Positions 1 to 22,031 of a DNA stretch of 64,000 bases are shown one piece after another. Below the pieces are notes generated by a model that was given only the letters and a program-made list of their open reading frames with translations, did not search any database and had not been told where the DNA came from. Positions within the stretch are counted from its first letter, which is position 1, and every line of letters begins with the position of its first letter. The position numbers and the translations under genes were made by a program. The stretch covers positions 1 to 64,000 of the forward strand of contig NZ_JAFFZE010000025.1 in assembly GCF_025165815.1 (NCBI RefSeq), given 5' to 3'. The stretch comes from Actinophytocola gossypii. Its GTDB lineage: Bacteria; Actinomycetota; Actinomycetes; Mycobacteriales; Pseudonocardiaceae.

Positions 1-1133
1 GTCGGACCCGGCTGCTGCGGCGGCAAAGCCTCACCAAACTTGTTCTCGTACTCCCCCAAATACGAATTCAACTCCTCATAAAACCTGTTCACCGCCTCCG
101 CGGCGTCATCACACGTCTGCGTGAAAGTCTCATACAAAGAATCATGCAAATCAACATTAAACGAATCACGAATCCACGCCTTACACTCCCGCCGCACATA
201 CTCCTTGTTCTCATCATTCAAATCACAGTCATCCGAACGAATCCGCCCCTCCAAATCCGTCCCACACTGCGAATCCACCCACGCCGCAACCTCAAGCACC
301 CGATCATGATCATCCTCACCAAGATCAGCACTCGCCAACTCCACAACCTTACGAGCCATATCCGGCGTCGCACTACCCACCGTCGGCGAATACAACCCCA
401 TCACCGTATCCGCCTTCGCCTTACACTCAGCGAACACATTCTCCACCAACGCCGTAATCATCCCCGGCGCCGCCGACAAAAAATCAACCAAATCCGACGA
501 ATTCGGATCAATCTCCTGCGAATAAAACCGATACGACGCATTCGCCGCCGGACCCGACCACGACCCATACACCGTGTTCAACTCCGACTCCGTCGACGAC
601 CGCAACCCCGACAACACCCCATGCGCCGCCCGCAACCGCTCCGCATCCTCCAAAAACTTCCGAAACCCAATCCCCAACTGCTCATCAAACCGAGTACGAA
701 CATCCTCCATACTAATCCGACCATGCCGACCCAAAGAATCCCCCGGCACCACATCATTCACCGGAATAAAATTCTCAAACACCCGCAACGCCGGACGCGC
801 CAACTCAAACAACTCATCCGACTTCTCCACCCCAGCAGAAGACGACGTCGGCGCACTCAACCCATCCAAATCCGCCGTATTCCGATCCAACTCATCCTGA
901 ACCAGCCGATGACTGTAACCACCCTCCTCAGACTCCGCCTGCGCATCCGCATACACATCGTCGAGGGACCCCATCGGAACAAACTCACCACGATCCAAAT
1001 ACTGATCGTGGTACCCCCGCATCTCCTCAGGCATATCCTCCGCGTCGGCATACCCGAGCCCGCCATACCCATTGTCCTGCAAATAGGCCGCATACAACCG
1101 CTGCTTCGTGTCCGCATCGACGAACGGATCGTC
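1..1133. repeat. Direct duplication, copy A (pairs with 5823-6955)
   Basis: Positions 1-1133 match 5823-6955 at a constant offset of 5822, with no difference found in the lines I compared and identical translations in several frames. The match stops abruptly at 1134/6956, inside codons 12-13 of the two WXG genes. It probably continues past the left edge. Both copies have the same orientation, so recent duplication or gene conversion is implied. Confidence 0.9.
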
Positions 1134-1172
1134 CAGCAGCGCCCTGACCTCGTCCCACGACCTGTCGCTCAT
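1..1172 (-). CDS. Large WXG-domain ESX-associated protein, second copy (C-terminus beyond window)
   Basis: This is the N-terminal part of a protein whose gene runs off the left edge. It starts MSDRSWDEVRALLDDPFVD; the ATG (1172-1170) overlaps the TGA of the ketosynthase-beta gene as ATGA, so the two are probably translationally coupled. After about 13 codons the sequence becomes identical to the gene at 4157-6991. It has a helical region with a YGSWSGPAANASY (W-x-G) turn typical of WXG/PPE-like ESX substrates, followed by several Cys residues. By analogy with its twin it should continue into Pro/Gly-rich linkers and beta repeats. Codons end mostly in G or T, unlike the C/G-ending codons of its neighbours. 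The role as a secreted ESX substrate or partner is inferred from the WXG turn and the operon; no enzymatic domain is visible. Confidence 0.75.
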   Translation of the reverse strand, partial: MSDRSWDEVRALLDDPFVDADTKQRLYAAYLQDNGYGGLGYADAEDMPEEMRGYHDQYLDRGEFVPMGSLDDVYADAQAESEEGGYSHRLVQDELDRNTADLDGLSAPTSSSAGVEKSDELFELARPALRVFENFIPVNDVVPGDSLGRHGRISMEDVRTRFDEQLGIGFRKFLEDAERLRAAHGVLSGLRSSTESELNTVYGSWSGPAANASYRFYSQEIDPNSSDLVDFLSAAPGMITALVENVFAECKAKADTVMGLYSPTVGSATPDMARKVVELASADLGEDDHDRVLEVAAWVDSQCGTDLEGRIRSDDCDLNDENKEYVRRECKAWIRDSFNVDLHDSLYETFTQTCDDAAEAVNRFYEELNSYLGEYENKFGEALPPQQPGP

Positions 1173-2206
1173 CGAACTCCCCTAACACCGAGCAGCCGAA
1201 CCACCACGGAACCGACCATGCCGTCCCGATCCACGGCGGTGGCCACGGCCACCCGCCCGTGCGCGTCGTCGGACCGCTCCGCGAGCGCGAACAGCCCGGT
1301 CAGCCCGAACACGCCGCCGACAGCGCCGGTGTCCCCGACGAGCCGCCCCGGCGCGACCACCCGGTCTATCCGCGTTCCCAACACCTCTCGCACCGCGTCG
1401 CTCTCCATCGTGTCCATCCCGGACACCGCGAGCCCCCACACCTCGTCCGGCGCCACCCCGACCAACGTCTGCCGCAGGCACTCGACCAGCGCGCGCCGGA
1501 CCTCCCCGTCCGCCGCGAGCCGCGTGCCCGTGGCTACGACCTCCGCCACCGCCGATCGGTTCCCGTTCGACGCCGGTCGCAGGAACAACACCGCGGCGCC
1601 CTCGCCCAACCGGGCGGTGTTACCCACCTCGCGTTCCAGCAGCGCACGGGCCCCGCTGTGCTCCTCGACCGCGCCGGCGAACACCCCGCTCGCCCGGCGG
1701 GCTCGCAGCAACCGTCCGGCGTATCGCAGCACCGCGACGCCCGACAGCCTGCCGGCGGCCAGCGTCGTGTTCGGACCGGTCAACCCGTGCCAGCCGGCGC
1801 TGCGCGCGGCGGCGGAGTTCATCAGCGCGAACGGCATCTGCGCCGGGTTCACGAAGTACGGCCTGCGCCGGGTCAGCGAGTCCGCGGTGAAGCCGAACTG
1901 GGTGAGCGTGCTCCCGCTGGTGGTGCCGAGCACGACGCCGGTGCGCCCGTCGGCTCCGACCTCCGCGCGCAGCAGCCCGACCGTGTGCACGGCGAGCGCG
2001 GTACCGCGGTCCATCGAGCCGGTTCCCTTGCGCCCCAACACGTCCTCGATGTCGAAGTCGGGCACCAGGTGCGCCGGTTCCGGCTCGGGGAACCAGTCGT
2101 CCGCGCCGCGGACCGCCGGAGCGGGCACACCAGAGCGCACGCCGTCGGCGAACGCGCCGGCGCCGCGCCCGTACGGGGAGGTCGTGGCCCAGCCGGTGAT
2201 GATCAC
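1169..2206 (-). CDS. Ketosynthase-like partner subunit (KS-beta / chain-length-factor-like, no catalytic Cys)
   Basis: A 345-residue thiolase-fold protein that reads VIITGWATTSPYG at its N-terminus, like the start of ketosynthases. The GTG start overlaps the stop of the upstream ketosynthase (GTGA), the classic KS-alpha/KS-beta coupling of type II systems. The nucleophile region reads GPNTTLAAGRLSGVAV, where active synthases have an A-C-[AS]-[AS]-G motif, so the catalytic cysteine is missing. No HGTGT or GHT histidine motif can be found either. It is shorter than a normal chain-length factor (about 400 residues). The expected role is a non-catalytic heterodimer partner of the KS at 2203-3390. 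The substrate and product are unknown. Confidence 0.75.
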   Translation of the reverse strand: MIITGWATTSPYGRGAGAFADGVRSGVPAPAVRGADDWFPEPEPAHLVPDFDIEDVLGRKGTGSMDRGTALAVHTVGLLRAEVGADGRTGVVLGTTSGSTLTQFGFTADSLTRRRPYFVNPAQMPFALMNSAAARSAGWHGLTGPNTTLAAGRLSGVAVLRYAGRLLRARRASGVFAGAVEEHSGARALLEREVGNTARLGEGAAVLFLRPASNGNRSAVAEVVATGTRLAADGEVRRALVECLRQTLVGVAPDEVWGLAVSGMDTMESDAVREVLGTRIDRVVAPGRLVGDTGAVGGVFGLTGLFALAERSDDAHGRVAVATAVDRDGMVGSVVVRLLGVRGVR

Positions 2207-3390
2207 GGTGCCCTGCCGAACAGCACGACCGAGTTGTTGCCGCCGAACGCGAGCGCGTTGTTTTGCACCACCCGCAGGTCGGCCGCCACCGCCTCGTTCG
2301 GCACGCAGTCGACGCCGCACTCCGGGTCGGTCTCGACGTGGTTGATCGTCGGCGGCACGAACCCCTCGGCCAACGCGATCGAGCACGCGGCGGCCGACAG
2401 CGCGCTGGCCGCGCCCATCGTGTGCCCCAGCATCGACTTGACCGACACCGTGCGCGGCGGCGTCGCCCCGAACACGTCGCGGATCGCACCGCACTCGGTG
2501 ACGTCGTTGGCCTTCGTCCCGGTGCCGTGCGCGGAGACCAGGTCGACCTCGCCCGGTTCCACCCCGGCGTCGTCAAGCGCGAGACGCATGCACCTGGCGA
2601 CCGAGCTGCGGTCCGGCGCGACCGGGTGTCCGGCGTCGCAGTTCAGCCCGTACCCCAGCACCTCGGCATAGATCCGGGCCCCTCGGGCGAGCGCGGTGTC
2701 GAGCGGTTCGAGCACCAGCACGCCCGCGCCCTCGCCGGTCAGGATGCCCTGGCGGTGCGTGTCGAAGGGCCGGCACCGCTCCGGGTCGACCGCGCCGAGC
2801 CGGTAGAAGCCGGTGAACGTCATCCGGCACATGGCGTCCGCGCCCCCGCACAGCGCCACGTCCACGTCCCCGGCGGCGACCGCGTCGAACCCGTCGCCGA
2901 TCGCGTAGTTCCCCGCGGCGCACGCCGTGGCCACAGTGGACACCTCGGCGCCGGCCAGTCCCAGTTCCCGGGCGACGCCCACCGACAGCAGCGCCGCCGG
3001 CACCCGCGCGGCCTCGCCCGCCGGCACACCCGCACCCCGCACGACGGCCTCCGCGATCCGCTCGCCGCGGTCGCCGCCGCCGTCCGTGGTGCCGACGGAG
3101 ACCATGGTGCGGGCGTCACCGAGCCCGTCCAGGCCGGCGTCGCGCACCGCCATCGTCGCGGCCGCGACCGCGAACTGTCCCGCACGCGGCAGGGTCTCCG
3201 GCCGGGTCAGCCACCGCTCCGGCTCGAACCCGACGACCTCACAGCCCGTGGCGTGCGCGAACCCGGTGGTGTCGAACGCACCGATCGGCCGGGCCCCGCT
3301 GCGCCCGGCCCGCAACCCGGCGGCGAACTCACGCGCGCCGACCCCGATGCTCGACACGACGCCGAGCCCGGTGACCGCCACCCGCCGCAC
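2203..3390 (-). CDS. Beta-ketoacyl-ACP synthase (KS-alpha, FabF-like)
   Basis: A 395-residue condensing enzyme, the usual FabF/KS-alpha length. The N-terminus MRRVAVTGLGVVSSIG is typical. The catalytic cysteine is Cys157 in VATACAAGN. The two histidines lie in SAHGTGTKAND and GHTMGAAS, so the Cys-His-His triad is complete. The C-terminus has the NALAFGGNNS loop. The family performs decarboxylative Claisen condensation of malonyl-ACP with an acyl starter. The GTG start is 4 bases after the ACP stop, and its own stop overlaps the next KS-like gene. With ACP and KS-beta it forms a minimal type II synthase set. There is no acyltransferase, ketoreductase or cyclase nearby, so it must borrow them from primary metabolism or do only one condensation. 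Location in an ESX operon is unusual. Confidence 0.9.
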   Translation of the reverse strand: MRRVAVTGLGVVSSIGVGAREFAAGLRAGRSGARPIGAFDTTGFAHATGCEVVGFEPERWLTRPETLPRAGQFAVAAATMAVRDAGLDGLGDARTMVSVGTTDGGGDRGERIAEAVVRGAGVPAGEAARVPAALLSVGVARELGLAGAEVSTVATACAAGNYAIGDGFDAVAAGDVDVALCGGADAMCRMTFTGFYRLGAVDPERCRPFDTHRQGILTGEGAGVLVLEPLDTALARGARIYAEVLGYGLNCDAGHPVAPDRSSVARCMRLALDDAGVEPGEVDLVSAHGTGTKANDVTECGAIRDVFGATPPRTVSVKSMLGHTMGAASALSAAACSIALAEGFVPPTINHVETDPECGVDCVPNEAVAADLRVVQNNALAFGGNNSVVLFGRAP

Positions 3391-3394
3391 GCCG

Positions 3395-3646
3395 TCACCC
3401 GTCCAGCGCGTTGCTCAACACGTCGTAGACGCCGTCGAGGGAGACGAGCCGCTCGAACTCGGCGGAGTCCACCTCGACGTCGAACTCGATCTCCAGGTTC
3501 GCGAGCAGTTCGATGAGCTTCATGGAGTCGGCGCCGAGGTCGTCGACGAAGTGGTCGGCCGGCCCGACCGCGTCCTCGTCGACCTCCAGCACCCGGGCGA
3601 CCACGGCCTTGATCTCGGCGGCCCGCGCGGCGATCAGCGCGTTCAC
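3395..3646 (-). CDS. Acyl carrier protein
   Basis: An 83-residue acidic four-helix carrier protein with the phosphopantetheine motif GADSMKLIELL, in which Ser41 is the attachment site. The downstream IEFDVEVDSAEFERLVSLDGVYDVL matches helices III and IV of ACPs. I place the start at the GTG whose bases overlap the stop of the upstream gene (GTGA), which gives normal ACP length. A TTG at 3661 would add five residues. The gene is 4 bases from the KS-alpha start. It is expected to carry the growing acyl chain in the cytoplasm for the adjacent KS pair. The context suggests that the acyl product serves the ESX-associated proteins encoded on either side, but this is inference. Confidence 0.9.
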   Translation of the reverse strand: MNALIAARAAEIKAVVARVLEVDEDAVGPADHFVDDLGADSMKLIELLANLEIEFDVEVDSAEFERLVSLDGVYDVLSNALDG

Positions 3647-4143
3647 TGCCGGTTCATCCAACTCGACTGGTTGGAGAAGTCGTCCTCGTCGTCGAGCACC
3701 TCGGTCGGACGGGCCGGACGACGCACCGGTGGCGGCGGCTGGACGGGCTTCTGCACCGGCTTCGGCGGTTCCGGGGCCGGCGCGGGCGTGTCGTCCTCGA
3801 TGGCGCCGAGCCCGCCGGGCGGCGGCTCCTCGCGCGGCCGGGTTGCCCGGAACACGAACTCCGGTTTGGCCTCGGCGTCCTCGCCGCCGAAGCCCATGAT
3901 GTAGTCCTTGTCCCGCTCGGTGCTCTCGGTGGCCCAGCCACCGGCCTGCGCGCGACGGCGGCCGAGCTCACCCATGTGCTTGGCGACCTGCTCGGCGACG
4001 GGGCCCTGCTTGCTCAGGGCCTCGGCGGCGCGTTCGCGGGCCGCGCGGGCGTTGCGGGTGCGCAGCGCGCGGCGTTCGGCCATCTCCCGGCGGACCTGAT
4101 CCATCCGCGCCCGCGCCTTGGCGGCCTTGTCGTGAGCGCTCAT
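3643..4143 (-). CDS. Basic coiled-coil ESX-operon protein with DDFS..SW tail
   Basis: A 166-residue protein with no recognised family. Residues 1-70 are a highly charged, Arg/Ala-rich helix (MSAHDKAAKARARMDQVRRE) that should form a coiled coil. The middle is acidic, then Pro-rich (KPVQKPVQPPPPVRRP). The tail reads EVLDDEDDFSNQSSWMNRQ. The same overall design and the same type of tail (DDLSGSSWLR) occur in the protein at 7533-8717, and DEDFS occurs twice in 15494-15925. It lies 13 bases after the large WXG gene and overlaps the ACP start. A chaperone or adaptor role for the large WXG protein is possible but unproven. Confidence 0.7.
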   Translation of the reverse strand: MSAHDKAAKARARMDQVRREMAERRALRTRNARAARERAAEALSKQGPVAEQVAKHMGELGRRRAQAGGWATESTERDKDYIMGFGGEDAEAKPEFVFRATRPREEPPPGGLGAIEDDTPAPAPEPPKPVQKPVQPPPPVRRPARPTEVLDDEDDFSNQSSWMNRQ

Positions 4144-4156
4144 CTTTCCTTCCCTC

Positions 4157-6991
4157 CTACCGGCCGCCCTCGCCGAAGGCGCTGCGGACCTGGGCGTCGG
4201 TGACGTCGTCGAACAGGTCGCCGGTGGTGCGCCACTGGGAGCCGGCTCGTTCCTGGTCGCCGCCACCCGCGCCACCGCCGCCGGCCCCACCGGCCATCAT
4301 CGGCATGCCGCCGGCCATGCCGTGCTGGCTTTGTCCGCCGCCGCCGCTGCCGCCGCCGTCGCTGGTGTCACCACCGTCGCCCCCGTCCGCGGCGGACGCG
4401 AGCCCCGCTTCGCCCGGAGCGTCGGACGGGGTGCCGGTGTAGTTGCTGGAGTCGGGAAGGCCGAAGGAGCCGGCCTCACCGGTGGCATCACTCGGATCGG
4501 CGAAGAACGAGCCACCGGCGACACTGGACTGGGCGGAGGTGCCGCCGTGCTCGGGGTTGACGGCGAACTGGCCCTGCGGGTCGGGCAGGTTCCCCGGACC
4601 GAACTGCTCACCAGGAGCGAACTGACCACGCGGATCCGGCAAGCCACCCGGACCACCGAACTGCTCACCAGGAGCGAACTGACCACGCGGATCCGGCAAG
4701 CCACCCGGACCACCGAACTGCTCACCAGGAGCGAACTGACCACGCGGATCCGGCAGGCCTCCCGGACCACCGGCGGGTGCCTCGCCCGGCGCGAACTGAC
4801 CTCGAGGATCCGGCAGGCCTCCGGGACCACCGAGTTGCTCACCGGGAGCGAACTGTCCACGCGGGTCAGGCGGACCACCTGGCCCACCACCCATCTGCTC
4901 GCCAGGGGCGAACTGACCACGCGGATCGGGCAGGCCTCCCGGACCACCGAACTGCTCACCAGGAGCGAATTGACCACGCGGATCCGGCGGACCACCTGGC
5001 CCACCACCCATCTGCTCACCCGGAGCGAACTGACCACGCGGATCCGGCAAACCGCCCGGGCCACCGCCCACCTGGTCACCCGGGACGAACTGACCATGCG
5101 GGTCGTTGCCGACGAGGCCCGCCGGTGTGGCCGGCGCTTCGGCGGGTAGGGGGCGCGGCTGGGGAGTGGCGGTGGGGCCCTCCTCGCCGGAGTAGTCGAG
5201 GTCGTAGGTGACGGGTTCGCCGGTGCCGTCGTCGACGGTGACCACGACGGTGTCGGTGGAGCCCTCGGGACGCTCGGCGGTGATGGTCAGGTCGCCGTCC
5301 TCGATGACGCAGGTGCCGTCGGGGCCCGCTTGGATCGGCTGACCCGGTTGGTTCGGCTGACCCGGTTGGTTCGGCTGGCCGGGCTGGCCGGGCTGGGTCG
5401 GTGAGGTGGGCTGGGTACCGTCGGCGCCGGGGCCGGTGGGGGTGGCTTCGTCGAAGTTCAGCGTGTACGTCTTCGGCTGGCCCGAGCCGTCGTCGACGGT
5501 GACCGTCACCTGGCCCTGGCCGTCCGGGCTGGTCACCGAGATCGAGCGCTCGCCGTCGTCGATCGTGACGGTTTCCTGTTCGCCCGGGGTGTTCGGGAGC
5601 AGGTTGCTCTGGTCGCCCGGGGTGGGCGCGTCCGGGAGTGGGGTGTCCTCCGGACCCGGCATCTCGGGCACTGAGGGTGGCGGGGGCGGAGCGGGCGGGG
5701 GCGGCATGGACGGGCCCCCGGGTCCACCGGGGCCGCTCGGACCACCGGGGCTTCCCGGGCCGGTCGGGCCGGGACCCGAGGGACCGGGACCGGTCGGACC
5801 TGGGCCAGTCGGGCCGGGACCGGTCGGACCCGGCTGCTGCGGCGGCAAAGCCTCACCAAACTTGTTCTCGTACTCCCCCAAATACGAATTCAACTCCTCA
5901 TAAAACCTGTTCACCGCCTCCGCGGCGTCATCACACGTCTGCGTGAAAGTCTCATACAAAGAATCATGCAAATCAACATTAAACGAATCACGAATCCACG
6001 CCTTACACTCCCGCCGCACATACTCCTTGTTCTCATCATTCAAATCACAGTCATCCGAACGAATCCGCCCCTCCAAATCCGTCCCACACTGCGAATCCAC
6101 CCACGCCGCAACCTCAAGCACCCGATCATGATCATCCTCACCAAGATCAGCACTCGCCAACTCCACAACCTTACGAGCCATATCCGGCGTCGCACTACCC
6201 ACCGTCGGCGAATACAACCCCATCACCGTATCCGCCTTCGCCTTACACTCAGCGAACACATTCTCCACCAACGCCGTAATCATCCCCGGCGCCGCCGACA
6301 AAAAATCAACCAAATCCGACGAATTCGGATCAATCTCCTGCGAATAAAACCGATACGACGCATTCGCCGCCGGACCCGACCACGACCCATACACCGTGTT
6401 CAACTCCGACTCCGTCGACGACCGCAACCCCGACAACACCCCATGCGCCGCCCGCAACCGCTCCGCATCCTCCAAAAACTTCCGAAACCCAATCCCCAAC
6501 TGCTCATCAAACCGAGTACGAACATCCTCCATACTAATCCGACCATGCCGACCCAAAGAATCCCCCGGCACCACATCATTCACCGGAATAAAATTCTCAA
6601 ACACCCGCAACGCCGGACGCGCCAACTCAAACAACTCATCCGACTTCTCCACCCCAGCAGAAGACGACGTCGGCGCACTCAACCCATCCAAATCCGCCGT
6701 ATTCCGATCCAACTCATCCTGAACCAGCCGATGACTGTAACCACCCTCCTCAGACTCCGCCTGCGCATCCGCATACACATCGTCGAGGGACCCCATCGGA
6801 ACAAACTCACCACGATCCAAATACTGATCGTGGTACCCCCGCATCTCCTCAGGCATATCCTCCGCGTCGGCATACCCGAGCCCGCCATACCCATTGTCCT
6901 GCAAATAGGCCGCATACAACCGCTGCTTCGTGTCCGCATCGACGAACGGATCGTCGAGGAGGGTTTTTACCTCGTTCCAGGAATGGCTCAC
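4157..6991 (-). CDS. Large WXG-domain ESX-associated protein with beta repeats and GQFAPGE repeats
   Basis: A 944-residue protein that starts at the GTG (VSHSWNEVKTLLDDP) overlapping the stop of the upstream gene as GTGA. Domains in order: helical N-terminal region to about residue 385 with a YGSWSGPAANASY W-x-G turn; collagen-like GPTGPGPTGPG stretch and a PPPPAPPPPP linker; two beta repeats (ISVTSPDGQGQVTVTVDDG and LTITAERPEGSTDTVVVTV); ten copies of a repeat of the form DPRGQFAPGEQFGGPGGLP; a Gly/Met-rich stretch (GGMPMMAGGAG); and the tail ERAGSQWRTTGDLFDD. The tail resembles the Gly-Met then R.T.(L/W)..D.(V/L)(W/F) ends of PPE-like ESX substrates. Secretion through the ESX machinery is inferred. 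The first 1.1 kb is identical to copy A and is AT-richer than the rest of the gene. Confidence 0.8.
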   Translation of the reverse strand: MSHSWNEVKTLLDDPFVDADTKQRLYAAYLQDNGYGGLGYADAEDMPEEMRGYHDQYLDRGEFVPMGSLDDVYADAQAESEEGGYSHRLVQDELDRNTADLDGLSAPTSSSAGVEKSDELFELARPALRVFENFIPVNDVVPGDSLGRHGRISMEDVRTRFDEQLGIGFRKFLEDAERLRAAHGVLSGLRSSTESELNTVYGSWSGPAANASYRFYSQEIDPNSSDLVDFLSAAPGMITALVENVFAECKAKADTVMGLYSPTVGSATPDMARKVVELASADLGEDDHDRVLEVAAWVDSQCGTDLEGRIRSDDCDLNDENKEYVRRECKAWIRDSFNVDLHDSLYETFTQTCDDAAEAVNRFYEELNSYLGEYENKFGEALPPQQPGPTGPGPTGPGPTGPGPSGPGPTGPGSPGGPSGPGGPGGPSMPPPPAPPPPPSVPEMPGPEDTPLPDAPTPGDQSNLLPNTPGEQETVTIDDGERSISVTSPDGQGQVTVTVDDGSGQPKTYTLNFDEATPTGPGADGTQPTSPTQPGQPGQPNQPGQPNQPGQPIQAGPDGTCVIEDGDLTITAERPEGSTDTVVVTVDDGTGEPVTYDLDYSGEEGPTATPQPRPLPAEAPATPAGLVGNDPHGQFVPGDQVGGGPGGLPDPRGQFAPGEQMGGGPGGPPDPRGQFAPGEQFGGPGGLPDPRGQFAPGEQMGGGPGGPPDPRGQFAPGEQLGGPGGLPDPRGQFAPGEAPAGGPGGLPDPRGQFAPGEQFGGPGGLPDPRGQFAPGEQFGGPGGLPDPRGQFAPGEQFGPGNLPDPQGQFAVNPEHGGTSAQSSVAGGSFFADPSDATGEAGSFGLPDSSNYTGTPSDAPGEAGLASAADGGDGGDTSDGGGSGGGGQSQHGMAGGMPMMAGGAGGGGAGGGDQERAGSQWRTTGDLFDDVTDAQVRSAFGEGGR
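4561..5105 (-). repeat. In-gene tandem repeats, about 54-57 bp unit (GQFAPGE repeats)
   Basis: Ten in-frame copies of a unit coding for DPRGQFAPGEQFGGPGGLP or close variants (EQM, EQL, EAPA forms). Unit length varies by one or two codons (GGG/GG variants). The outermost copies are the most diverged (DPHGQFVPG and DPQGQFAVN), as expected for a repeat array that grows and homogenises in its middle. Confidence 0.9.
5823..6955. repeat. Direct duplication, copy B (pairs with 1-1133)
   Basis: The internal copy of the 1.13 kb duplication. It covers nearly all of the N-terminal WXG region of the gene at 4157-6991 and ends at 6956, about 12 codons inside the start. GC content is visibly lower than the flanks and the plus strand is poor in G. 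Confidence 0.9.
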
Positions 6992-7368
6992 AGCCCACTC
7001 CCGGGCGTGGTCACCGTGCTGGTGGCACCCGTGTCCGTGCTCTCGTAGGACTGCCCGGCGCCCCCGAGCTGGCCGGCGAAGGACATGATGTTGGTGCACA
7101 TCGCGGTGGCGCCGGCGCCGATCTGCTCCATGGCGGTGGAGTAGTCGGCATGCCATTCGGTGTGCGCCTTGCCGAAGTCGGCGGCGGCGACCTCGGTCGT
7201 CTGGAGGTCGTCGACCTCGCCCTGCGCGTCCTCGGCGGCGTTGCTGATGTTGCGGCCGGACGTGGACATCTGGCCGGTATCGGTGGTGTAGCCGTCAGGA
7301 GGCGCGACCCCGCTGGACCCCGGATCGTTGGTGGTGTTCGAGGTGGTGCTGGGCGGTGGCGTGGTCAT
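6988..7368 (-). CDS. Small EspC/WXG100-like ESX protein
   Basis: A 126-residue, largely helical protein. After a Ser/Thr/Pro-rich start (MTTPPPSTTSNTTNDPGSSG) it has two predicted helices around EWHADYSTAMEQIGAGATAM and a Tyr near the end (GAGQSYESTD), the arrangement of EspC (DUF2580) and WXG100-type ESX substrates, though there is no strict W-x-G. It is the first gene of the operon running to the left edge; its TGA overlaps the GTG of the large WXG gene. The same small-then-large order is repeated at 10836-11144 and 8719-10839, so the pair may be co-secreted. The family assignment is by architecture only. Confidence 0.65.
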   Translation of the reverse strand: MTTPPPSTTSNTTNDPGSSGVAPPDGYTTDTGQMSTSGRNISNAAEDAQGEVDDLQTTEVAAADFGKAHTEWHADYSTAMEQIGAGATAMCTNIMSFAGQLGGAGQSYESTDTGATSTVTTPGSGL

Positions 7369-7532: not shown

Positions 7533-8717
7533 TCAGCGCAGCCAGGAGCTGCCGGAGAGGTCGTCGGGTTCGTCGGTGGGCGAGGTCGGGCGGCGGGGCG
7601 GGGCCTGGCGAGGTTGGGGTTCGGGGGTTGCCTCGCGGTCCTCGGGTGCGCCCAGCTTGAGGGTCTTCCGCGGGGCGGGACGGGACGGCGGCTGCGAGGT
7701 CCTGCCGGCCGCGGATGCTGTGTCACCGGCGGGTCGTGGCGGGTTCGGCTCAGCACGCCGAGGCTCGTCGGACTGTGACCGTGTGGGTTGCCGGCGCTGG
7801 TCGGCCCGCGCGGTCCGGTCGGCCTGCACGGTCGGGGACTGCCGCTCGGCCCGATCGCCGGGTGAGCGCGCGAACCGCCGACTCTGCTCGGCTCGATCGA
7901 CCGGTGACTTCAGGGTCTGGCTGCTCCGCTCGACCCGGTCAGCCTCCGCACTCGTGAACGGCCGGCTCTGGCCAGCGGGCTCACCTCGGCCAACCTGTGA
8001 AGGCCCTAGCTGACCACTCCGCTCGACCCGGTCAGCCGCCGCATTCGTGAACGGCCGGCTCTGGCCAGGACGCTCGCCCCGGGCAGCCTCCGCGCTCGTG
8101 AACGGCCGGCTCTGGCCAACACGCTCGACCCGATCAGCCTCCGCAGAGGATTGCCGACTCTGGGCGGCACGTGCGGCTCGGTCAACCTGTGCGTTCATCG
8201 GCTGGCGGCTCTGCTCAGCACGCTGGGATCGGGCGGCTTGGGGCTGCACGGGCTGTCGGTTTCGTGCGCTTTGCCCGTCTGTCGAGTCCTGGCCGGGCCA
8301 GATGCCTTGCCCGCCGGTGACACCTCGCCGGGTCTGCCCGTCCAGATGGCCGGCGGCCCCCGACTCGCCGCTGCGCGCACCGGACGGAGTGGCGCGCGCG
8401 GGCGCGGAGCGCTCGACCGGCCTGCCTCGCCGGTCGGGCTCGCGGGTCGTCCGGAACTCGTCGGCGCCGAGGGCGAGGGTGGCGGGTTTCGGGGGGACGC
8501 GGGTGGGTGGCTCCGGCTCGGCGGGTTTGGCCTGGGCGATGCGCTCGTCCATCGCCTGCTTTTCGCGTTCGCGGCGTTCGAGCAGGTCCTTGACCTGCTT
8601 GTCGATCGCCTCGGAGCGGGTGGCGGTCTCGCCCAGTGCGCGCAGGCCCGCGGCGGCGGTGGCCTCGATGCGGCGGCGGGTCGCGTCGGGATCGAGCTCG
8701 TACAGGGACACGCTCAC
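7533..8717 (-). CDS. Basic, repeat-rich coiled-coil ESX-operon protein with DDLS..SW tail
   Basis: A 394-residue protein of unknown function. The N-terminus (MSVSLYELDPDATRRRIEA) leads into a charged coiled coil up to about residue 70 (RREREKQAMDERIAQ). Then come long Arg/Gln/Ser-rich imperfect repeats around SAEADRVERVGQSRPFT, two copies of an L.LGA.E.R motif (TLALGADEFRTTRE, TLKLGAPEDRE) and the tail DEPDDLSGSSWLR. It is a longer paralogue of 3643-4143 and occupies the same place, after a large WXG gene, in the second module. GTG starts lie at 8717 (1 base after the upstream stop) and 8711. The disordered, basic composition suggests a scaffold or adaptor, but nothing proves this. Confidence 0.65.
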   Translation of the reverse strand: MSVSLYELDPDATRRRIEATAAAGLRALGETATRSEAIDKQVKDLLERREREKQAMDERIAQAKPAEPEPPTRVPPKPATLALGADEFRTTREPDRRGRPVERSAPARATPSGARSGESGAAGHLDGQTRRGVTGGQGIWPGQDSTDGQSARNRQPVQPQAARSQRAEQSRQPMNAQVDRAARAAQSRQSSAEADRVERVGQSRPFTSAEAARGERPGQSRPFTNAAADRVERSGQLGPSQVGRGEPAGQSRPFTSAEADRVERSSQTLKSPVDRAEQSRRFARSPGDRAERQSPTVQADRTARADQRRQPTRSQSDEPRRAEPNPPRPAGDTASAAGRTSQPPSRPAPRKTLKLGAPEDREATPEPQPRQAPPRRPTSPTDEPDDLSGSSWLR

Positions 8718-8718
8718 C

Positions 8719-10839
8719 TCACTGGGACTTGAGATCGTCCTCGCCGAGCACGCCGTGCATGCTGTGGACGGGATCGCCGGAGTCGAAGAGGTCGCCGTGC
8801 ACGCTCCAGCCGGTGCCGGCGCGGCCGACGGTCTCGGTGTCGCCGTTGACTCCGGAGCCGGCCGCGCCCGCCGCGGCCATCACCGGCACGGCGGAACCGG
8901 TCGCGCCGGCCGGCTCGCCGTCGGCGGCGCTGGCCAGGCCCGCCTCGCCGGGCTCGGGCGGGTCGGACAGCAGTACGCCGGACAGGCGGCCGCTGGGGTC
9001 ACTCTGGGTGGCGGTTGCCTCAGCGGTGCTCGAGTTGGCGGGGGCTGTCGTGTTGACCGGCGGCGAGTCGGGAGCGGGTGGATCGGAGACGTCGGTGGGC
9101 GACGTCTCGGCGGGGTTCGCGGGTTCCGTGGGCGCGGAGCGTGCGGGGTCGGGGTCGGGGTCGGTGGAATTCCTGGCGTCGGGTGTGGAGTCGGGGGAAT
9201 CCGGATCCGCGGACCGCGGCGCGCCGGGAACGGGGTCTACGGCATCCGGAACAGCGGACTCCACCGCGCCGGGCACGGAACTCTCGGCATCCGGAACCGC
9301 GGGCTCCACCGCGCCGGGCACGGAACTCTCGGCATCCGGAACAGCGGACTCCACCGGGCCACGCACGGAACTCTCGGCATCCGGAACAGCGGACTCCGCC
9401 GAGCCCGGAACCTCCACGGGCTCCTCCGAGACAGGTGCGGAACCCGTGGCCCTCGAGTCGGGAGCGGAGTCCGCGGAGGCCGGTGGCTCGGGCTCGGCGG
9501 TGAAGTCGACTGTGTACGTGGTCGGCTTGCTGGTGCCGTCGCCGACGGTGACGGTGATGGTGTCGGCGTCGAACAGGGACCGTTCGGCGATGATGGTGAC
9601 CTGGCCGTCCCGGATGACGCACTTGCCGTTGGTTCCGGCGGGAACATGCTCGGTGTCGGGGAGCGGCTCGGCCGCGGGCGTCAGGCCACTCGCGGCGTCG
9701 AAGTCGAGCGTGTAGGACCTGGTCTCGCCCGCCGGGGTGTCGACCGTGATCTTGATCTGGCCCTCATCGGTGGGGTTGTTCACCGCGATGGTTCGGTCGG
9801 CGTGCTTGATCTCCACCGACTCGGGCTTCGGTTCGGGAGCCTCGGACGCGGGCGACGGGACTGGTTCGGGAGCCGACTCGGGTGCTGGTGGCGGGGCGGA
9901 CGGGATCGGGGCCTGGCTCGGGGTCGCCGGAGCGCCACCGGCGGGCGGGCCGGCGTCCACTATCGACAGCGTCTGGAACGGCTTGGTCTCGGCGATGATC
10001 CGCAGGGTGTCCAGGGCGTCGGCGAGGAGCTTGTCCACATCGGAACGGAGCTGGTCGGTCGCCTCGTACCAGTTGTTGATCTTGCCGCTGATCGCCGAGC
10101 GTTCCTCGTCCGCCCAGCGGGTGATCTGCTGGTACTGGCCGATGACCAGGCCGGCGTTGTCCTGGCAGAGCCAGCCGGCCACGTCGTCGTAGTTCTGCTG
10201 GGTGATGATCCGGCCGACGATGTACGACTTCTGCTCGTCGTTGTTCTTCAGGCACCCCGAGGCGAACCCGTGCAGGGTCTCGTCGCAGCGGTCGGCGAAG
10301 TGTTCCACGTCGGCGTCGTCGACCTTGCGCCACGAACCCGGCTCGGTGAGGCCGGTGAACTTCAGGTGGGTGTTCACCGCGTCGTCCCGGTACGTCGCGT
10401 ACTCGGTGCGGATGGCGGACAGCGCCGCCTCCAGGTTGCCGGCCGCGCCCCGTACGGCACCCGCGTAGTCGTCGAGGGTGCGCTCCACCTTCTCGATCGA
10501 CGTGCGGAACGCGTCGTACGCCTCGCCCTTCCAGTCGTGGGCGAGACGCTCCCGGCCGGCCCGCACCACACCGGCCACGTTCTCGATCGCCGCCGCAAGG
10601 CCGTGGAGGCGGGCGGCGTCCTTGCCGATCCTGCCCCAGTGCAGGCCGGCGACCTCCAAGCGCTTGTCCTCGGGGGCGGGCGCCAGGTCCAGCTCGAGCT
10701 TGCGGCCGTACTCGGGCGCCACCTCGCCCACGGCGTGGTCCAGCGGCGCGCCGATGACGTCCCACGCCTCGCCGTCGGCACCGGCGGCGGCCACCTTCTC
10801 GTTCATCGCGGAGGTGGCGTCGGGGAGCTCGAACCTCAT
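8719..10839 (-). CDS. Large WXG-domain ESX-associated protein with beta repeats (paralogue)
   Basis: A 706-residue protein. Residues 1-300 are helical with a DWKGEAYDAF W-x-G turn near residue 100. A Pro/Ser-rich linker follows, then two beta repeats (IAVNNPTDEGQIKITVDTP and VTIIAERSLFDADTITVTV) matching those in 4157-6991. A long Ser/Pro/Asp-rich segment with repeats of VPDAESSVPGAVE-type units comes next, and the tail GTGWSVHGDLFDSGDP. The ATG overlaps the stop of the small upstream gene (ATGA). It keeps ordinary high-GC codon use, unlike its paralogue's N-terminal domain. It is likely an ESX substrate or surface protein; no catalytic domain is seen. Confidence 0.75.
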   Translation of the reverse strand: MRFELPDATSAMNEKVAAAGADGEAWDVIGAPLDHAVGEVAPEYGRKLELDLAPAPEDKRLEVAGLHWGRIGKDAARLHGLAAAIENVAGVVRAGRERLAHDWKGEAYDAFRTSIEKVERTLDDYAGAVRGAAGNLEAALSAIRTEYATYRDDAVNTHLKFTGLTEPGSWRKVDDADVEHFADRCDETLHGFASGCLKNNDEQKSYIVGRIITQQNYDDVAGWLCQDNAGLVIGQYQQITRWADEERSAISGKINNWYEATDQLRSDVDKLLADALDTLRIIAETKPFQTLSIVDAGPPAGGAPATPSQAPIPSAPPPAPESAPEPVPSPASEAPEPKPESVEIKHADRTIAVNNPTDEGQIKITVDTPAGETRSYTLDFDAASGLTPAAEPLPDTEHVPAGTNGKCVIRDGQVTIIAERSLFDADTITVTVGDGTSKPTTYTVDFTAEPEPPASADSAPDSRATGSAPVSEEPVEVPGSAESAVPDAESSVRGPVESAVPDAESSVPGAVEPAVPDAESSVPGAVESAVPDAVDPVPGAPRSADPDSPDSTPDARNSTDPDPDPARSAPTEPANPAETSPTDVSDPPAPDSPPVNTTAPANSSTAEATATQSDPSGRLSGVLLSDPPEPGEAGLASAADGEPAGATGSAVPVMAAAGAAGSGVNGDTETVGRAGTGWSVHGDLFDSGDPVHSMHGVLGEDDLKSQ

Positions 10840-11144
10840 GCGCCGGTCGCCTTCAGGTCGCCCAGCGCCGTGGTGTCGGCGGTGACGATCAGGTCCGTGC
10901 CCTGGTTCAGCTTGCCCGCCACCTCGGCCAGGCCGGTCGTCAGGTTGCCCAGGTCCTCGGCCAGCGCCGCGATGTACGACTCGAAGTCACTGCCGTGCTC
11001 GGCCCAGGAGGTGCCGAAGTCGGCCCGCTTCGCGCTGGTGTCGGCCAGGGTCGCCGTCACCCGCTCGAGCTGGGTACTCGCCTGCTCGAAGACCTCGGCG
11101 TAGGCCCGGATGGCCTCCGGGTCGTACTCGAACCCTGCCGGCAT
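10836..11144 (-). CDS. Small EspC/WXG100-like ESX protein (paralogue)
   Basis: A 102-residue helical-hairpin protein (MPAGFEYDPEAIRAYAEVF) with a TSWAEHGSDFESYIAAL segment between two helices, similar to EspC/WXG100-type substrates. It lacks a strict W-x-G. It is the promoter-proximal gene of the 11144-7533 operon and overlaps the large WXG gene by 4 bases. The 66 bases between it and the convergent-side neighbour glmM (same strand) hold no obvious terminator. Confidence 0.65.
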   Translation of the reverse strand: MPAGFEYDPEAIRAYAEVFEQASTQLERVTATLADTSAKRADFGTSWAEHGSDFESYIAALAEDLGNLTTGLAEVAGKLNQGTDLIVTADTTALGDLKATGA

Positions 11145-11210: not shown

Positions 11211-12545
11211 TCAGCCCGCCGTGGCGACGATTCCAGCGAGCCGCCGCACCGCCGCCTCGGCCTCCTCCTGCGACGGGGCCTCCACCATCACCCGCACCAG
11301 CTGCTCGGTCCCGGACGGGCGGAGCAGCACCCGGCCGGTGTCGCCGAGTTCCGCCTCCACCGCGGCCACCGCCTCGTTGACCGTCACCGACGTCGCCACC
11401 GCGGCCTTGTCGCCCACCTTCACGTTCACCAGCACCTGCGGCAGCCTGGTCATCACGGCCGCCAGGTCCGCCAGCGACCGGCCGCTCGACGCCATCCGCG
11501 ACATCAGGCGCATCGCGGTCAGCAGGCCGTCGCCGGTGGTGGCGTGCGCGGGGAGCACCAGGTGGCCGGACTGCTCGCCGCCCAGCGACAGGCCGCCCGC
11601 GCGCAGCTCCTCCAGCACGTACCGGTCGCCGACCGCCGTGGTCCGCAGGGTCACGCCGTGCTCGCGCATCGCCAGGTGCAGGCCCAGGTTGCTCATCACG
11701 GTCGCGACCAGCGTGTCCTCGGCGAGCTCCCCGGACTCCTTCATCGCCAGCGCCAGCACCGCCATGATCTGGTCGCCGTCGACGACCTCGCCCGACGCGT
11801 CCACCGCCAGGCACCGGTCGGCGTCGCCGTCGTGCGCGATGCCCAGGTCGGCGCGCTCGGCCAGCACCGCCTCGCGCAGGGCGTCGAGGTGGGTGGAGCC
11901 GCAGCCGTCGTTGATGTTCTCGCCGTCCGGCAGCGCATGGATCGCGATGACCTCGGCGCCCGCCTCCCGGTACACCTGGGGTGCGGCCGCCCACGCTGCG
12001 CCGTTCGCGCAGTCGACCACCACGCGGAGGCCGTCGAGCCGGTGCGGCAGGGCCTTGAGCAGGTGCGCGATGTACCGGTCGAGCGCGTCGGAGATGTCGT
12101 AGACGCGGCCGATGCCGGCACCGGTCGGGCGGTCGGCCACCACGCCCACGGCGGCCTCGATCTCGTCCTCGATGGTGTCCGGCAGCTTGTGCCCGCCCGA
12201 GGCGAACAGCTTGATGCCGTTGTCCGGCATGGGGTTGTGCGACGCGGAGATCATCACGCCGAAGTCCGCGTTCAGCTCGCCGACCAGGTGCGCGACCGCC
12301 GGCGTCGGCAGCACGCCGACCTGCATGACGTCGGCGCCGGCCGAGGTGAGCCCGGCCGCGACGGCCGCCTGCAGCATCTCCCCGCTCGCGCGCGGGTCGC
12401 GGCCGACGACCGCGACCGGCCGGTGCGAGCTGTCGTGCTCGGCCAGCACGCGGGCGGCAGCGGCGGCGACGGACAGGGCCACCTCGGGACCGAGGTCGCC
12501 GTTGGCGAGTCCGCGAACTCCGTCGGTGCCGAACAGGCGCGCCAT
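11211..12545 (-). CDS. glmM: Phosphoglucosamine mutase
   Basis: GlmM interconverts glucosamine-6-phosphate and glucosamine-1-phosphate for UDP-GlcNAc and peptidoglycan synthesis in the cytoplasm. The 444-residue product starts [15 protein letters not shown]. The phospho-serine is Ser102 in [13 protein letters not shown], the metal loop is DGDADRC and the sugar loop is GEQSGH; length matches the family. The ATG at 12545 is chosen because the GTDGVRG motif normally begins within ten residues of the start. It follows rplM-rpsI, the standard actinobacterial order next to the ESX-4 locus (Rv3441c-Rv3443c in M. tuberculosis). Confidence 0.97.
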
Positions 12546-12581
12546 CGTGGGGAACCTCCAAAAGGGGGGGCGAAAAGCAGC

Positions 12582-12624
12582 GAACGCCACGCCCCGTGCA
12601 TCGTTCGCACAGAGCGTGGCGTTC
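12582..12624 (-). terminator. Hairpin between rpsI and glmM
   Basis: An inverted repeat GAACGCCACGC (12582-12592) / GCGTGGCGTTC (12614-12624), 11 paired bases with a 21-base loop, starting 12 bases after the rpsI stop on the minus strand. It probably terminates or attenuates ribosomal-protein transcription before glmM. Confidence 0.65.
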
Positions 12625-12636
12625 ACCGCACTGGAT

Positions 12637-13086
<450 letters not shown>

Positions 13087-13117
13087 TGGTCCTCAATTCG
13101 TGCTGGTGGCTGGCCTG

Positions 13118-13561
13118 TTAGCGGCTGACCTTGGCGATCTCGAACGGCTTCGGCTGCTGGGCGGCGTGCGGGTGGTCGGGACCCGCGTAGACCTTGAGCT
13201 TCTTGCCCTGGGCGCGGCCGAGCTTGTTCTTCGGGAGCATGCCCTTGACGACCTTCTCCAGCAGCCGCTCCGGCTTGGTCTCCAGCAGCTCACCGAAGGA
13301 CTGCTTGCGCAGACCGCCCGGGTAGCCGCTGTGCCGGTAGGCGAAGGCCTGGTCGCGCTTGTTGCCGGTCAGCACGACCTTCTCGGCGTTGACGATGACC
13401 ACGAAGTCGCCGGTGTCCACGTGCGGCGCGAAGGTTGGCTTGTGCTTGCCGCGCAGCAGCGTGGCGACGTTCGACGCGAGCCGGCCGAGCACCACGTCCT
13501 CGGCATCGATGACATGCCAGGTGCGGTCGACCTCGCCGGGCTTCGGGCTGTACGTGCGCAC
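13118..13561 (-). CDS. rplM: 50S ribosomal protein L13
   Basis: A 147-residue protein containing [32 protein letters not shown] and the L13 signature around [17 protein letters not shown]. It starts with GTG. It is the first gene of rplM-rpsI. The 166 bases upstream (13562-13727) separate it from a divergent lipoprotein gene and should carry both promoters; I could not pick out convincing boxes. Confidence 0.97.
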
Positions 13562-14674: not shown

Positions 14675-14959
14675 TCACCAGCGGCCGGCGTTGTTGCGCT
14701 CGCCGTCGCGGTAGTCGTCGGCGGCGCGCTGCACGGCGGTACCGATCGCGGCCAGGACCTGCTGCAGGTCGGCGGCGGCGGTGTCCCACTGGCGCTGGTG
14801 GTTCTGGTAGGCCTCGGACGCCTCACCGGTCCAGGTGGCGACCAGCGGCTGCAGGTACGACTTCAGGTCGTCCAGCGAACCCTGGACCTTCTGGGCGTTC
14901 GACGTGATGCTCGCCGAGGCGGCCTCGAGGCCACCGAATGTAACCTTGATCTCCGACAT
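14675..14959 (-). CDS. WXG100 protein (EsxT position)
   Basis: A 94-residue helical hairpin with the W-T-G turn in LVATWTGEASEAYQNHQRQW, the defining feature of WXG100 secreted proteins. It ends DDYRDGERNNAGRW; the Y-x3-[DE] type export signal after helix 2 is present as YRDGE. It is the downstream member of a pair with 15011-15325, as EsxT/EsxU are next to ESX-4 in mycobacteria. It is expected to heterodimerise and be exported by EccC. Confidence 0.92.
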   Translation of the reverse strand: MSEIKVTFGGLEAASASITSNAQKVQGSLDDLKSYLQPLVATWTGEASEAYQNHQRQWDTAAADLQQVLAAIGTAVQRAADDYRDGERNNAGRW

Positions 14960-15010
14960 TTCAATCCCCTTGGTGCTTGGTCTTCAGGTGGTCAGTGGAA
15001 AGAAGCGCGC

Positions 15011-15325
15011 TCAGCCGTCCAGCTGCGCGGACAGACCGCCGAAGACGTCCTGCTGCGAGGCTTCCTTCTCGTCGTAGGTGGAGCCCGCGGCCATCAGCTG
15101 CTCGGCGATCGCCTCGAGGGCGGCGTTGAGGTTCTTGGCGTTGTTGTCGAACCGCGTCATCATGTTCGTGAACGCGGTGGCCGCCTGGCCCTTCCACTGC
15201 CCCTGCAGGCCCATGACCGTGTCCCACACCTGCTTGAGGGTCGCCTCGACGTCCTCCTTGACACCCACGGTCTTCTGGTGGGCGTTGGTGAACTCTGCAA
15301 CTGTCCCTGTGTAACCGTCAGCCAT
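15011..15325 (-). CDS. WXG100 protein (EsxU position)
   Basis: A 104-residue helical hairpin (MADGYTGTVAEFTNAHQKTV) with the W-K-G turn in LQGQWKGQAATAFTNMMTRF and the tail YDEKEASQQDVFGGLSAQLDG. The ATG at 15325 is preferred over an in-frame upstream start at 15406 because WXG100 proteins are about 100 residues. It is 51 bases upstream of its partner. The upstream region carries a striking repeated operator-like sequence (15442-15477). Confidence 0.92.
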   Translation of the reverse strand: MADGYTGTVAEFTNAHQKTVGVKEDVEATLKQVWDTVMGLQGQWKGQAATAFTNMMTRFDNNAKNLNAALEAIAEQLMAAGSTYDEKEASQQDVFGGLSAQLDG

Positions 15326-17782: not shown

Positions 17783-17794
17783 GTCGCCGTCATG

Positions 17795-21796: not shown

Positions 21797-22031
21797 AGGT
21801 CCGCCTCCCCGGAATCAACCCTGTCCGCCTCGCAGGCTCGGTGTCGCCGCTCGCGGTCGCCCTGCGTCAGTGGTTCGCTCGCAAGCGCGCTCACCTTAAT
21901 GTGCCCCCGTACGTCTTCAGACCGTTTCTTGCGGAACCCGCGCACGCGCCGGAACCGGTACGGCCATACTAGGGGCCGCCACCGACGGCAAGAGGTGGTT
22001 ATCGAAGTACGGGACAGTGAGGGGGCTCGCG
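21797..22031. promoter_or_regulatory. Divergent promoter region eccC / eccD
   Basis: 235 bases between the divergent starts of eccC and eccD. It must contain promoters for both secretion operons. A TACTAGG stretch near 21967 could be the -10 of eccD, but no -35 at standard spacing is convincing. No repeat or riboswitch-like structure was seen. Confidence 0.4.

What the first reader, a model, noticed from the sequence alone, without database searches (positions are those of the whole stretch)
1169..3646. ACP / ketosynthase / ketosynthase-beta cassette inside an ESX substrate operon
Three genes of a minimal type II synthase (ACP with Ser41, KS with Cys157-His-His, and a KS-like partner) lie in one minus-strand run between two large WXG-domain genes. 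Overlaps are 4 bases at 3643-3646, 2203-2206 and 1169-1172, with a 4-base gap between ACP and KS. No acyltransferase, ketoreductase or cyclase is present. This suggests that an acyl or polyketide chain is made for, or attached to, an ESX-exported protein or its membrane partner. I know of no described type VII system with its own ketosynthase pair.
Basis: partly seen in the sequence, partly recalled or inferred. Interest (0 to 1): 0.85.

Follow-up and report, generated by a model that had tools for sequence, protein, structure and literature searches.

The report
Acyl-chain makers tied to protein exporters
Genes that build or load a fatty chain sit inside the gene cluster of a bacterial protein export system, and related bacteria use a different chain-loading enzyme beside the same exported protein, which suggests that this export system handles proteins that carry a lipid.

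Summary
In detail: an ACP (Ser41), a ketosynthase (Cys157/His288/His323) and a KS-like partner without these residues lie in one overlapping operon with a small WXG protein, a large WXG protein (A) and a coiled-coil protein (cc), at an ESX-4-type locus between glmM and glmS. The left edge is a contig edge; the next contig runs into est-glmS, so no PKS genes are hidden there. KS and partner are nearest to the highly reducing type II PKS pair 6kxd; the ESX-linked KS form one clade (16 of 16 rows), with members in Actinophytocola, Prauserella, Qaidamihabitans and Amycolatopsis arida. The new result is a swap: of 109 loci with the same large WXG protein, 20 have ACP-KS-KSbeta, 72 have a fatty-acyl-AMP ligase (FAAL) plus ACP just upstream, 2 ACP alone, 15 none. 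In 42 of the 72, FAAL-ACP-WXGs-A-cc stands apart from glmM/glmS with no other conserved gene. Two unrelated acyl-ACP makers are thus tied to one export unit. Coupling is well supported; transfer of the chain to an exported protein is inferred, and no acyltransferase was recognised. My searches of the held library found no description of it.

The parts
1169..2206 (-). KS-beta (chain-length-factor-like KS partner without the catalytic residues)
   Evidence: partial ketoacyl-synt match; nearest solved chain 6kxd_B, profile 301.3 bits; no Cys/His at aligned catalytic places in 15 of 15
2203..3390 (-). Ketosynthase (KS), Cys157-His288-His323, Asp103
   Evidence: Pfam; 6kxd_A 613.8 bits; residues in 16 of 16 ESX-linked KS
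3395..3646 (-). Acyl carrier protein, Ser41
   Evidence: PP-binding 8.9e-13; Ser kept in 15 of 15
3643..4143 (-). cc: coiled-coil-like protein with an acidic, Trp-containing C-terminal tail (DDEDFSNQSSWM)
   Evidence: no Pfam or NCBIfam match; tail pattern in 25 of 28 relatives
4157..6991 (-). A: large WXG protein, probable T7SS substrate
   Evidence: W-x-G in 87 of 87 rows, at a turn between two long helices in the model of the P. cavernicola protein
6988..7368 (-). WXGs: small WXG100-like partner with C-terminal YxxxD/E
   Evidence: WXG100 E 1.5e-5, below cut-off; YxxxD/E in 27 of 27
3..1172 (-). A2: second large WXG gene, cut by the contig edge, continued in contig C19
1..1133 (.). Copy 1 of a 1133-base exact repeat (copy 2 is 5823-6955); the assembly breaks in it
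5823..6955 (.). Copy 2 of the repeat (N-terminal half of A)
7533..11144 (-). Paralogous triplet: EspC-like 10836-11144, large WXG protein 8719-10839, coiled-coil-like 7533-8717; no acyl genes
   Evidence: Pfam EspC 9.1e-7 and weak WXG100; order
11211..13561 (-). glmM, rpsI, rplM: syntenic landmarks
   Evidence: Pfam
14675..15304 (-). Two WXG100 genes of the export locus
15962..24877 (.). Export machine genes: Rv3446c-type/Hsp70-like 15962-17782 (-), EccC 17795-21796 (-), EccD 22017-23435 (+), mycosin 23432-24877 (+)
   Evidence: NCBIfam

Best explanation
The ACP-KS-KSbeta set is a dedicated acyl-ACP supply module of a type VII (ESX-4-type) export unit made of a small WXG protein, a large WXG protein and a coiled-coil protein. 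Here KS and KS-beta build a chain on the ACP; in sister lineages a fatty-acyl-AMP ligase loads a ready-made fatty acid on an ACP. The acyl chain is then passed to the exported WXG pair (or to cc) before or during export, which gives a lipidated or lipid-carrying secreted protein. Shown by sequence: gene content, order, conservation, catalytic residues, and the swap of acyl enzymes beside the same proteins. Inferred: that the acyl-ACP serves these proteins (about 0.85) and that the chain ends up on or in the exported protein (about 0.5; as a covalent bond about 0.35-0.4). The KS has the residue that in Iga11 expels the chain after each condensation, so reduction and dehydration must come from enzymes encoded elsewhere, probably the fatty acid synthase (inferred).
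For: 72 of 109 loci with A have FAAL-ACP directly before WXGs-A, 72 of 72 in that order; 20 have ACP-KS-KSbeta. 42 of the 72 have neither glmM nor glmS in range, and there no further gene family is shared by more than 20 of 42 loci, so the link is not owed to one chromosomal site. FAAL identity. Purifying selection on KS in three genome pairs (dN/dS 0.093/0.45, 0.097/0.54, 0.020/0.20). ACP Ser and KS catalytic residues kept. WXGs has the T7SS motif YxxxD/E in 27 of 27, cc as control 1 of 28. Overlapping stop and start codons through cc, ACP, KS, KS-beta, A2. No KR or DH motif in 14 of 14 ESX-linked loci.
Against: 15 of 109 loci have the WXG unit without acyl genes at the locus and 2 have ACP only; genome G019 has A, cc and est but no set (L159) and L160 kept only the ACP. 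No acyltransferase is recognised, and no acceptor residue is established. KS-beta relatives in other contexts are metabolite clusters (23 of 38 contexts opened). The 72 FAAL loci are not all independent: up to 20 of the 42 free-standing ones share flanks. The loci were taken from the top of a score list. The fold search of the A model gave no significant match. Nothing here measures expression, chains or secretion.
Confidence: 0.5

Rival explanations
1. The acyl-ACP feeds a small molecule or envelope lipid that the large WXG protein binds or escorts out of the cell; no protein is acylated.
For: KS and KS-beta belong to a metabolite-making family; no protein acyltransferase is present; A has a long Gly/Pro-rich tail and two small beta regions of unknown role.
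Against: The free-standing FAAL cassette has no other enzyme that could finish or release a product; the ESX-linked KS loci lack the KR and DH motifs seen in 20 of 23 non-ESX loci.
Confidence: 0.25
2. Acyl-ACP acts as a ligand or sensor that gates assembly or export of the WXG unit according to fatty acid supply, without transfer.
For: Two different ways to charge an ACP are kept with the same unit; one locus keeps ACP without KS (L160).
Against: A dedicated FAAL or KS pair would not be needed to read the general acyl-ACP pool; KS keeps its full catalytic set in 16 of 16.
Confidence: 0.1
3. Bystander: a highly reducing type II PKS remnant settled in the glmM-glmS interval and has nothing to do with export.
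For: The KS clade is nested among metabolite-cluster KS; the glmM-glmS interval is kept in many genomes with or without acyl genes.
Against: Operon overlaps with the WXG genes, conservation across several genera with purifying selection, and the FAAL-ACP counterpart that goes with the same proteins in 42 loci outside that interval.
Confidence: 0.07
4. Aromatic antibiotic minimal PKS whose other genes lie beyond the left edge.
For: The left edge is a contig edge.
Against: C19 overlaps there by 278 bases and shows est, glmS, nnrD, alr; relatives show the same order. KS scores 613.8 bits to 6kxd_A against 246.5 to actinorhodin KS 1tqy_A.
Confidence: 0.02

Closest known systems
Highly reducing type II PKS KS-CLF pair (6kxd; Iga11-Iga12 of ishigamide by recall)
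   Same: Nearest solved structure for both KS (613.8 bits) and KS-beta (301.3 bits); catalytic residues and the Asp113 equivalent; ACP beside them
   Different: No KR or DH motif at the locus (0 of 14); sits in a type VII export operon
FAAL-ACP pairs (FadD32/FadD23/FadD28 type ligases)
   Same: The alternative module: AMP-binding with DIP2-like C domain (6 of 6 scanned, one just under its cut-off); for the one searched, FadD32, FadD23 and FadD28 among the top matches
   Different: No PKS or NRPS follows; the next genes are WXGs, A and cc in 72 of 72
ESX-4 type VII secretion locus
   Same: EccC, EccD, mycosin, Rv3446c-type protein and two WXG100 genes beside rplM-rpsI-glmM
   Different: EccB lies elsewhere in the genome; large WXG-cc units and acyl genes are added
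Acyl-ACP-dependent acylation of secreted proteins (RTX toxin / HlyC type; recalled, not tested)
   Same: Would work alike if the best explanation is right: acyl-ACP donor, secreted protein acceptor
   Different: No HlyC-like gene recognised; another secretion system; its own acyl-ACP makers

Membership tests
Highly reducing type II PKS (biosynthetic cluster) | KS with Cys-His-His and partner without the catalytic Cys | tested here: met
   16 of 16 KS; 15 of 15 partners
Highly reducing type II PKS (biosynthetic cluster) | Asp at the Iga11 Asp113 place (expels beta-ketoacyl-ACP) | tested here: met
   D103 aligned to residue 113 of 6kxd_A; Asp in 16 of 16 ESX-linked, 4 of 4 g17, 13 of 20 nearer non-ESX KS, 0 of 4 other KS of this genome; role from passages of PMC8358021
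Highly reducing type II PKS (biosynthetic cluster) | KR and DH genes in the cluster | tested here: not met
   motifs in 0 of 14 ESX-linked loci against 20 of 23 non-ESX loci with either; so the KS pair is a member of the protein family, the locus is not filed as such a cluster
Aromatic type II minimal PKS | KS nearest to aromatic KS; cyclase/aromatase nearby | tested here: not met
   actinorhodin KS far behind 6kxd; no such family among the ten window genes scanned
ESX-4 type VII secretion locus | EccC, EccD, mycosin, two WXG100 genes, Rv3446c-type protein | tested here: met
ESX-4 type VII secretion locus | EccB in the locus | tested here: not met
   EccB matches only on contigs C51 and C6
T7SS substrate (WXG pair) | W-x-G at a helix turn; YxxxD/E tail motif in the pair | tested here: met
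   87 of 87 A rows, 27 of 27 WXGs; model
T7SS substrate (WXG pair) | Secretion by the ESX machine | not testable with these tools
   needs culture
FAAL (alternative module) | AMP-binding with FAAL-type C domain, nearest to known FAALs | tested here: met
   6 proteins; 1 protein
Acyl-ACP-dependent protein acylation (HlyC type) | HlyC-like acyltransferase gene | tested here: not met
   none among the window genes scanned by Pfam or NCBIfam and no further conserved gene in 42 free-standing cassettes

The most novel reading that the evidence does not exclude
A branch of type VII secretion exports lipid-modified proteins: a dedicated ACP is charged either by a FAAL or by a KS-CLF pair, and the chain is transferred to the WXG pair by one of the cassette's own proteins (large WXG, small WXG or cc), which would then be a new kind of acyl-ACP-dependent protein acyltransferase.
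Probability: 0.35. Interest if true: 0.92.

Novelty: new variant of a known kind. Interest (0 to 1): 0.78.

Why it matters
By my recall, type VII substrates are not known to need fatty acylation, and the passages that I saw of PMC4791881 say that the function of ESX-4 had yet to be determined. A compact unit in which two unrelated acyl-ACP makers replace each other beside the same exported protein points to what this export system carries in many soil actinomycetes, and the five-gene FAAL form is small enough to move into a laboratory host and test directly.

Tried and rejected
Rejected: PKS genes past the left edge. Rejected: a pure glmM-glmS neighbourhood effect (42 free-standing FAAL cassettes). 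Rejected as part of the unit: est (PETase-like alpha/beta hydrolase); it lies before glmS with or without acyl genes and was found in none of the 42 free-standing loci. Undecided: whether the KS sets of genus g17 and of Actinophytocola/Prauserella came in once or twice; one clade is not rejected for KS (AU p 0.46) nor for A (p 0.416). Led nowhere: fold search of the A model (mean pLDDT 62.5; no match at E 0.001; PE25-PPE41 6vj5_B at rank 14 with E 0.34); profile search of A against solved structures (best cytochrome c E 0.055; ESAT-6 E 0.74 over the W-x-G hairpin; neither significant); Pfam and NCBIfam for A and cc; literature. Dropped: G/T-only third positions as a general trait of A genes; elsewhere such stretches look like wrong-frame readings of Gly/Pro-rich parts. 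Mended after checking: I had first read Ala or Gly in KS-beta at the Cys place; the joint alignment gives Arg, so I claim only the absence of Cys.

Limits of the counts: the 109 loci are the ESX-linked KS loci plus loci taken down the score list of the A search, not a random sample; some genomes are in twice. Of 235 genomes with an A-like match, those with weaker matches (beyond about E 1e-77, where the printed list ends) were not opened. 110 loci went into; L033 (contig of 4.5 kb) had no A N-terminus. The A tree used 92 of 120 rows (free-standing FAAL rows thinned to one in three); one search dropped 5 more (L165_2, L177_2, L074_2, L169_1, L034_2). L078 was left out of the KS alignment and tree because its KS frame looks broken near the start; L092 (contig fragment) was left out of alignments and trees, L173 of those of KS and KS-beta. 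L040 is counted as non-ESX by absence of A, glmM, glmS and est matches; its genes were not called.
Full report
Observation. The three genes are present as described: KS-beta 1169-2206, KS 2203-3390, ACP 3395-3646 (minus strand), with 4-base overlaps and one 4-base gap. Pfam and NCBIfam recognise ACP and KS; KS-beta is recognised only over part of its length. Upstream in the operon are cc (3643-4143), the large protein A (4157-6991) and a small WXG-like protein, WXGs (6988-7368). Downstream a second A gene starts at 1172.

The left edge. Window base 1 is the first base of contig C7. C7:1-1133 equals 5823-6955 exactly, and the contig stops in this repeat. Contig C19 ends with 278 bases that match C7:1-278 with 2 mismatches and holds the C-terminal half of such a gene, then est on the other strand, glmS, nnrD and alr. 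The join is therefore very likely, though not proven, and no further PKS genes are seen on that side.

The locus. The window holds an ESX-4-type export locus: two WXG100 genes, an Rv3446c-type protein, EccC, EccD and mycosin, next to rplM-rpsI-glmM. That this is the place of ESX-4 in mycobacteria is recalled. EccB lies elsewhere in the genome. Between glmM and WXGs is another triplet of the same plan (EspC-like, large WXG, coiled-coil-like) without acyl genes.

Distribution of the KS set. KS-beta relatives were sought in 60 kin genomes (15 with a match at 1e-5) and in 390 genomes of the family (73 at 1e-50). I opened 38 contexts: 14 are ESX-linked (one, L033, a contig too short to show glmM or glmS), 1 is a contig fragment, 23 are of another kind with no A, glmM, glmS or est match. 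Of these 23, 20 have a ketoreductase-like or dehydratase-like motif (13 the latter); of the 14 ESX-linked, none. Single examples were confirmed by Pfam as FabA-like, short-chain reductase and DSBA. In the named collection 16 loci came up: four Actinophytocola, eight Prauserella, Qaidamihabitans albus, Amycolatopsis arida, a MAG fragment and a Streptomyces. The first fourteen carry cc-ACP-KS-KSbeta next to A (in L094 only the end of A is on the contig); the MAG contig is too short to say; the Streptomyces locus has no A match. In a tree of 51 KS rows the ESX-linked ones are one clade (16 rows, 100/97) nested among the cluster KS; four g17 rows form another (100/100), and a joint origin is not rejected (AU p 0.46).

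What the enzymes are. KS profile: 613.8 bits to 6kxd_A, then 420.8 (9s5h_B); actinorhodin KS 246.5. KS-beta profile: 301.3 bits to 6kxd_B, then 114.5 (9s5h_C). That 6kxd is Iga11-Iga12 is recalled; the library calls it Ketosynthase. The alignment puts Asp103 of the window KS on residue 113 of 6kxd_A, and passages of PMC8358021 describe Asp113 of Iga11 as the residue that helps release the beta-ketoacyl-ACP for reduction and dehydration. It is Asp in 16 of 16 ESX-linked and 4 of 4 g17 KS, in 13 of 20 nearer non-ESX KS, and in 0 of 4 other KS of this genome that were aligned. So the pair should make a chain that is reduced between condensations; no KR or DH is at the locus, hence the fatty acid synthase is the likely helper (inference). 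KS is under purifying selection in three genome pairs.

The swap. A search with the N-terminal part of A found a match in 235 of 390 family genomes at 1e-10, but in a draw of 394 genomes across the class only in 2, the window's own and one of the same family. I opened further A loci and classified 109. 20 have ACP-KS-KSbeta: 15 in the order A-cc-ACP-KS-KSbeta, L078 without a separate cc match, and four in genus g17 with the three genes on the other strand before WXGs. 72 have a large gene and an ACP directly before WXGs, in the order FAAL-ACP-WXGs-A in 72 of 72. In six of these the larger protein (529-567 aa) was scanned: AMP-binding in six, with the DIP2-like C domain in six (in L166 just under its cut-off). 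For one of them the best solved matches are 5d6j and 5icr (deposited as Acyl-CoA synthase), then FadD32, FadD23 and, further down, FadD28, far ahead of CoA ligases. Two loci have ACP only (L173 at a contig end, where KS follows) and 15 have neither. 30 of the 72 FAAL loci have glmM and/or glmS within range and 42 have neither; among these 42, WXGs, A, FAAL and cc are the shared called genes (42, 41, 39 and 39 loci; the ACP is too short for that clustering but is in all 42) and no other family exceeds 20. The shared flanks of up to 20 loci show that these copies are not all independent.

Reading. Two unrelated ways to charge an ACP are tied to the same WXGs-A-cc unit, at more than one place in the genome. 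The simplest account is that the acyl chain on that ACP is used by, or on, the exported unit. WXGs has the T7SS tail motif YxxxD/E (recalled) in 27 of 27 sequences, cc as a control in 1 of 28; A has W-x-G in 87 of 87, at a turn between two long helices in the model. The FAAL cassette leaves only WXGs, A and cc as acceptor or transferase. A keeps two cysteines across types (at 345 in 87 of 87 rows, at 307 in 81 of 87), but these may form a disulfide. Which protein takes the chain is not known.

Against. The WXG unit exists without acyl genes at the locus in 15 of 109 loci; four of these are second loci in genomes that have a FAAL set elsewhere (L167, L190, L193, L196). Genome G019 has A, cc and est but no set (L159), and L160 keeps only the ACP. 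The A model is weak outside its N-terminal domain, and neither fold nor profile search gave a significant match. Nothing here shows expression, chains or secretion.

Print. Searches for type VII secretion with ketosynthase and acyl carrier protein (2 papers), ESX-4 with acyl carrier protein and Amycolatopsis (0), type VII secretion with acyl carrier protein and WXG100 (8), FAAL with type VII secretion (11), ESX-4 with Pseudonocardiaceae (0), ESX-4/WXG/evolution terms (47, of which 12 listed), acylation terms (13) and WXG100 with chain length factor (0) gave no paper that, from the titles and abstract openings shown, describes such a locus. In PMC4791881, of which I saw passages, 'acyl carrier' and 'synthase' do not occur, and it says that insertions, deletions and rearrangements of ESX-4 are common outside the mycolic acid producers. 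The library lacks most subscription papers, so absence from print is not proven.

Noticed in passing
window 5823-6955 and 1-1133: The exact repeat has third codon positions that are almost only G or T (C 7%, G 58%, T 35%, A 0%), against about 50% C in neighbouring genes and in the A genes of three relatives; synonymous divergence to A. xinjiangensis is saturated there (pS 0.79 against 0.2-0.4 in neighbours). The stretch begins gradually about codon 60 and ends near codon 390. Unexplained.
   Followed up: partly
L167:10998-16490: A 1830-aa acetyl-CoA-carboxylase-type protein (biotin carboxylase, carrier and carboxyltransferase domains) lies directly before a WXGs-A-cc unit that has no FAAL; malonyl-CoA supply near an export unit is suggestive.
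   Followed up: no
L172, L235, L251, L252 (genus g17): ACP-KS-KSbeta lies on the opposite strand between cc and WXGs in four loci, a different arrangement of the same parts.
   Followed up: partly
L078 (G371) and L160 (G293): The KS frame of L078 looks broken near its start; L160 keeps the ACP but has no KS or KS-beta match. Described only.
   Followed up: no
window 7533-8717 and 3643-4143: The coiled-coil-like proteins of both triplets end in a similar acidic, Trp-containing tail (DDLSGSSWLR and DDFSNQSSWM), perhaps a shared binding or export signal.
   Followed up: no
L042, L082, L093, L049: Clusters with several KS and KS-beta-like genes, reductase and dehydratase genes, apparently highly reducing type II PKS clusters; not checked against known products.
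   Followed up: no
window 15962-17782: Rv3446c-type export protein with an Hsp70-like N-terminal half.
   Followed up: no
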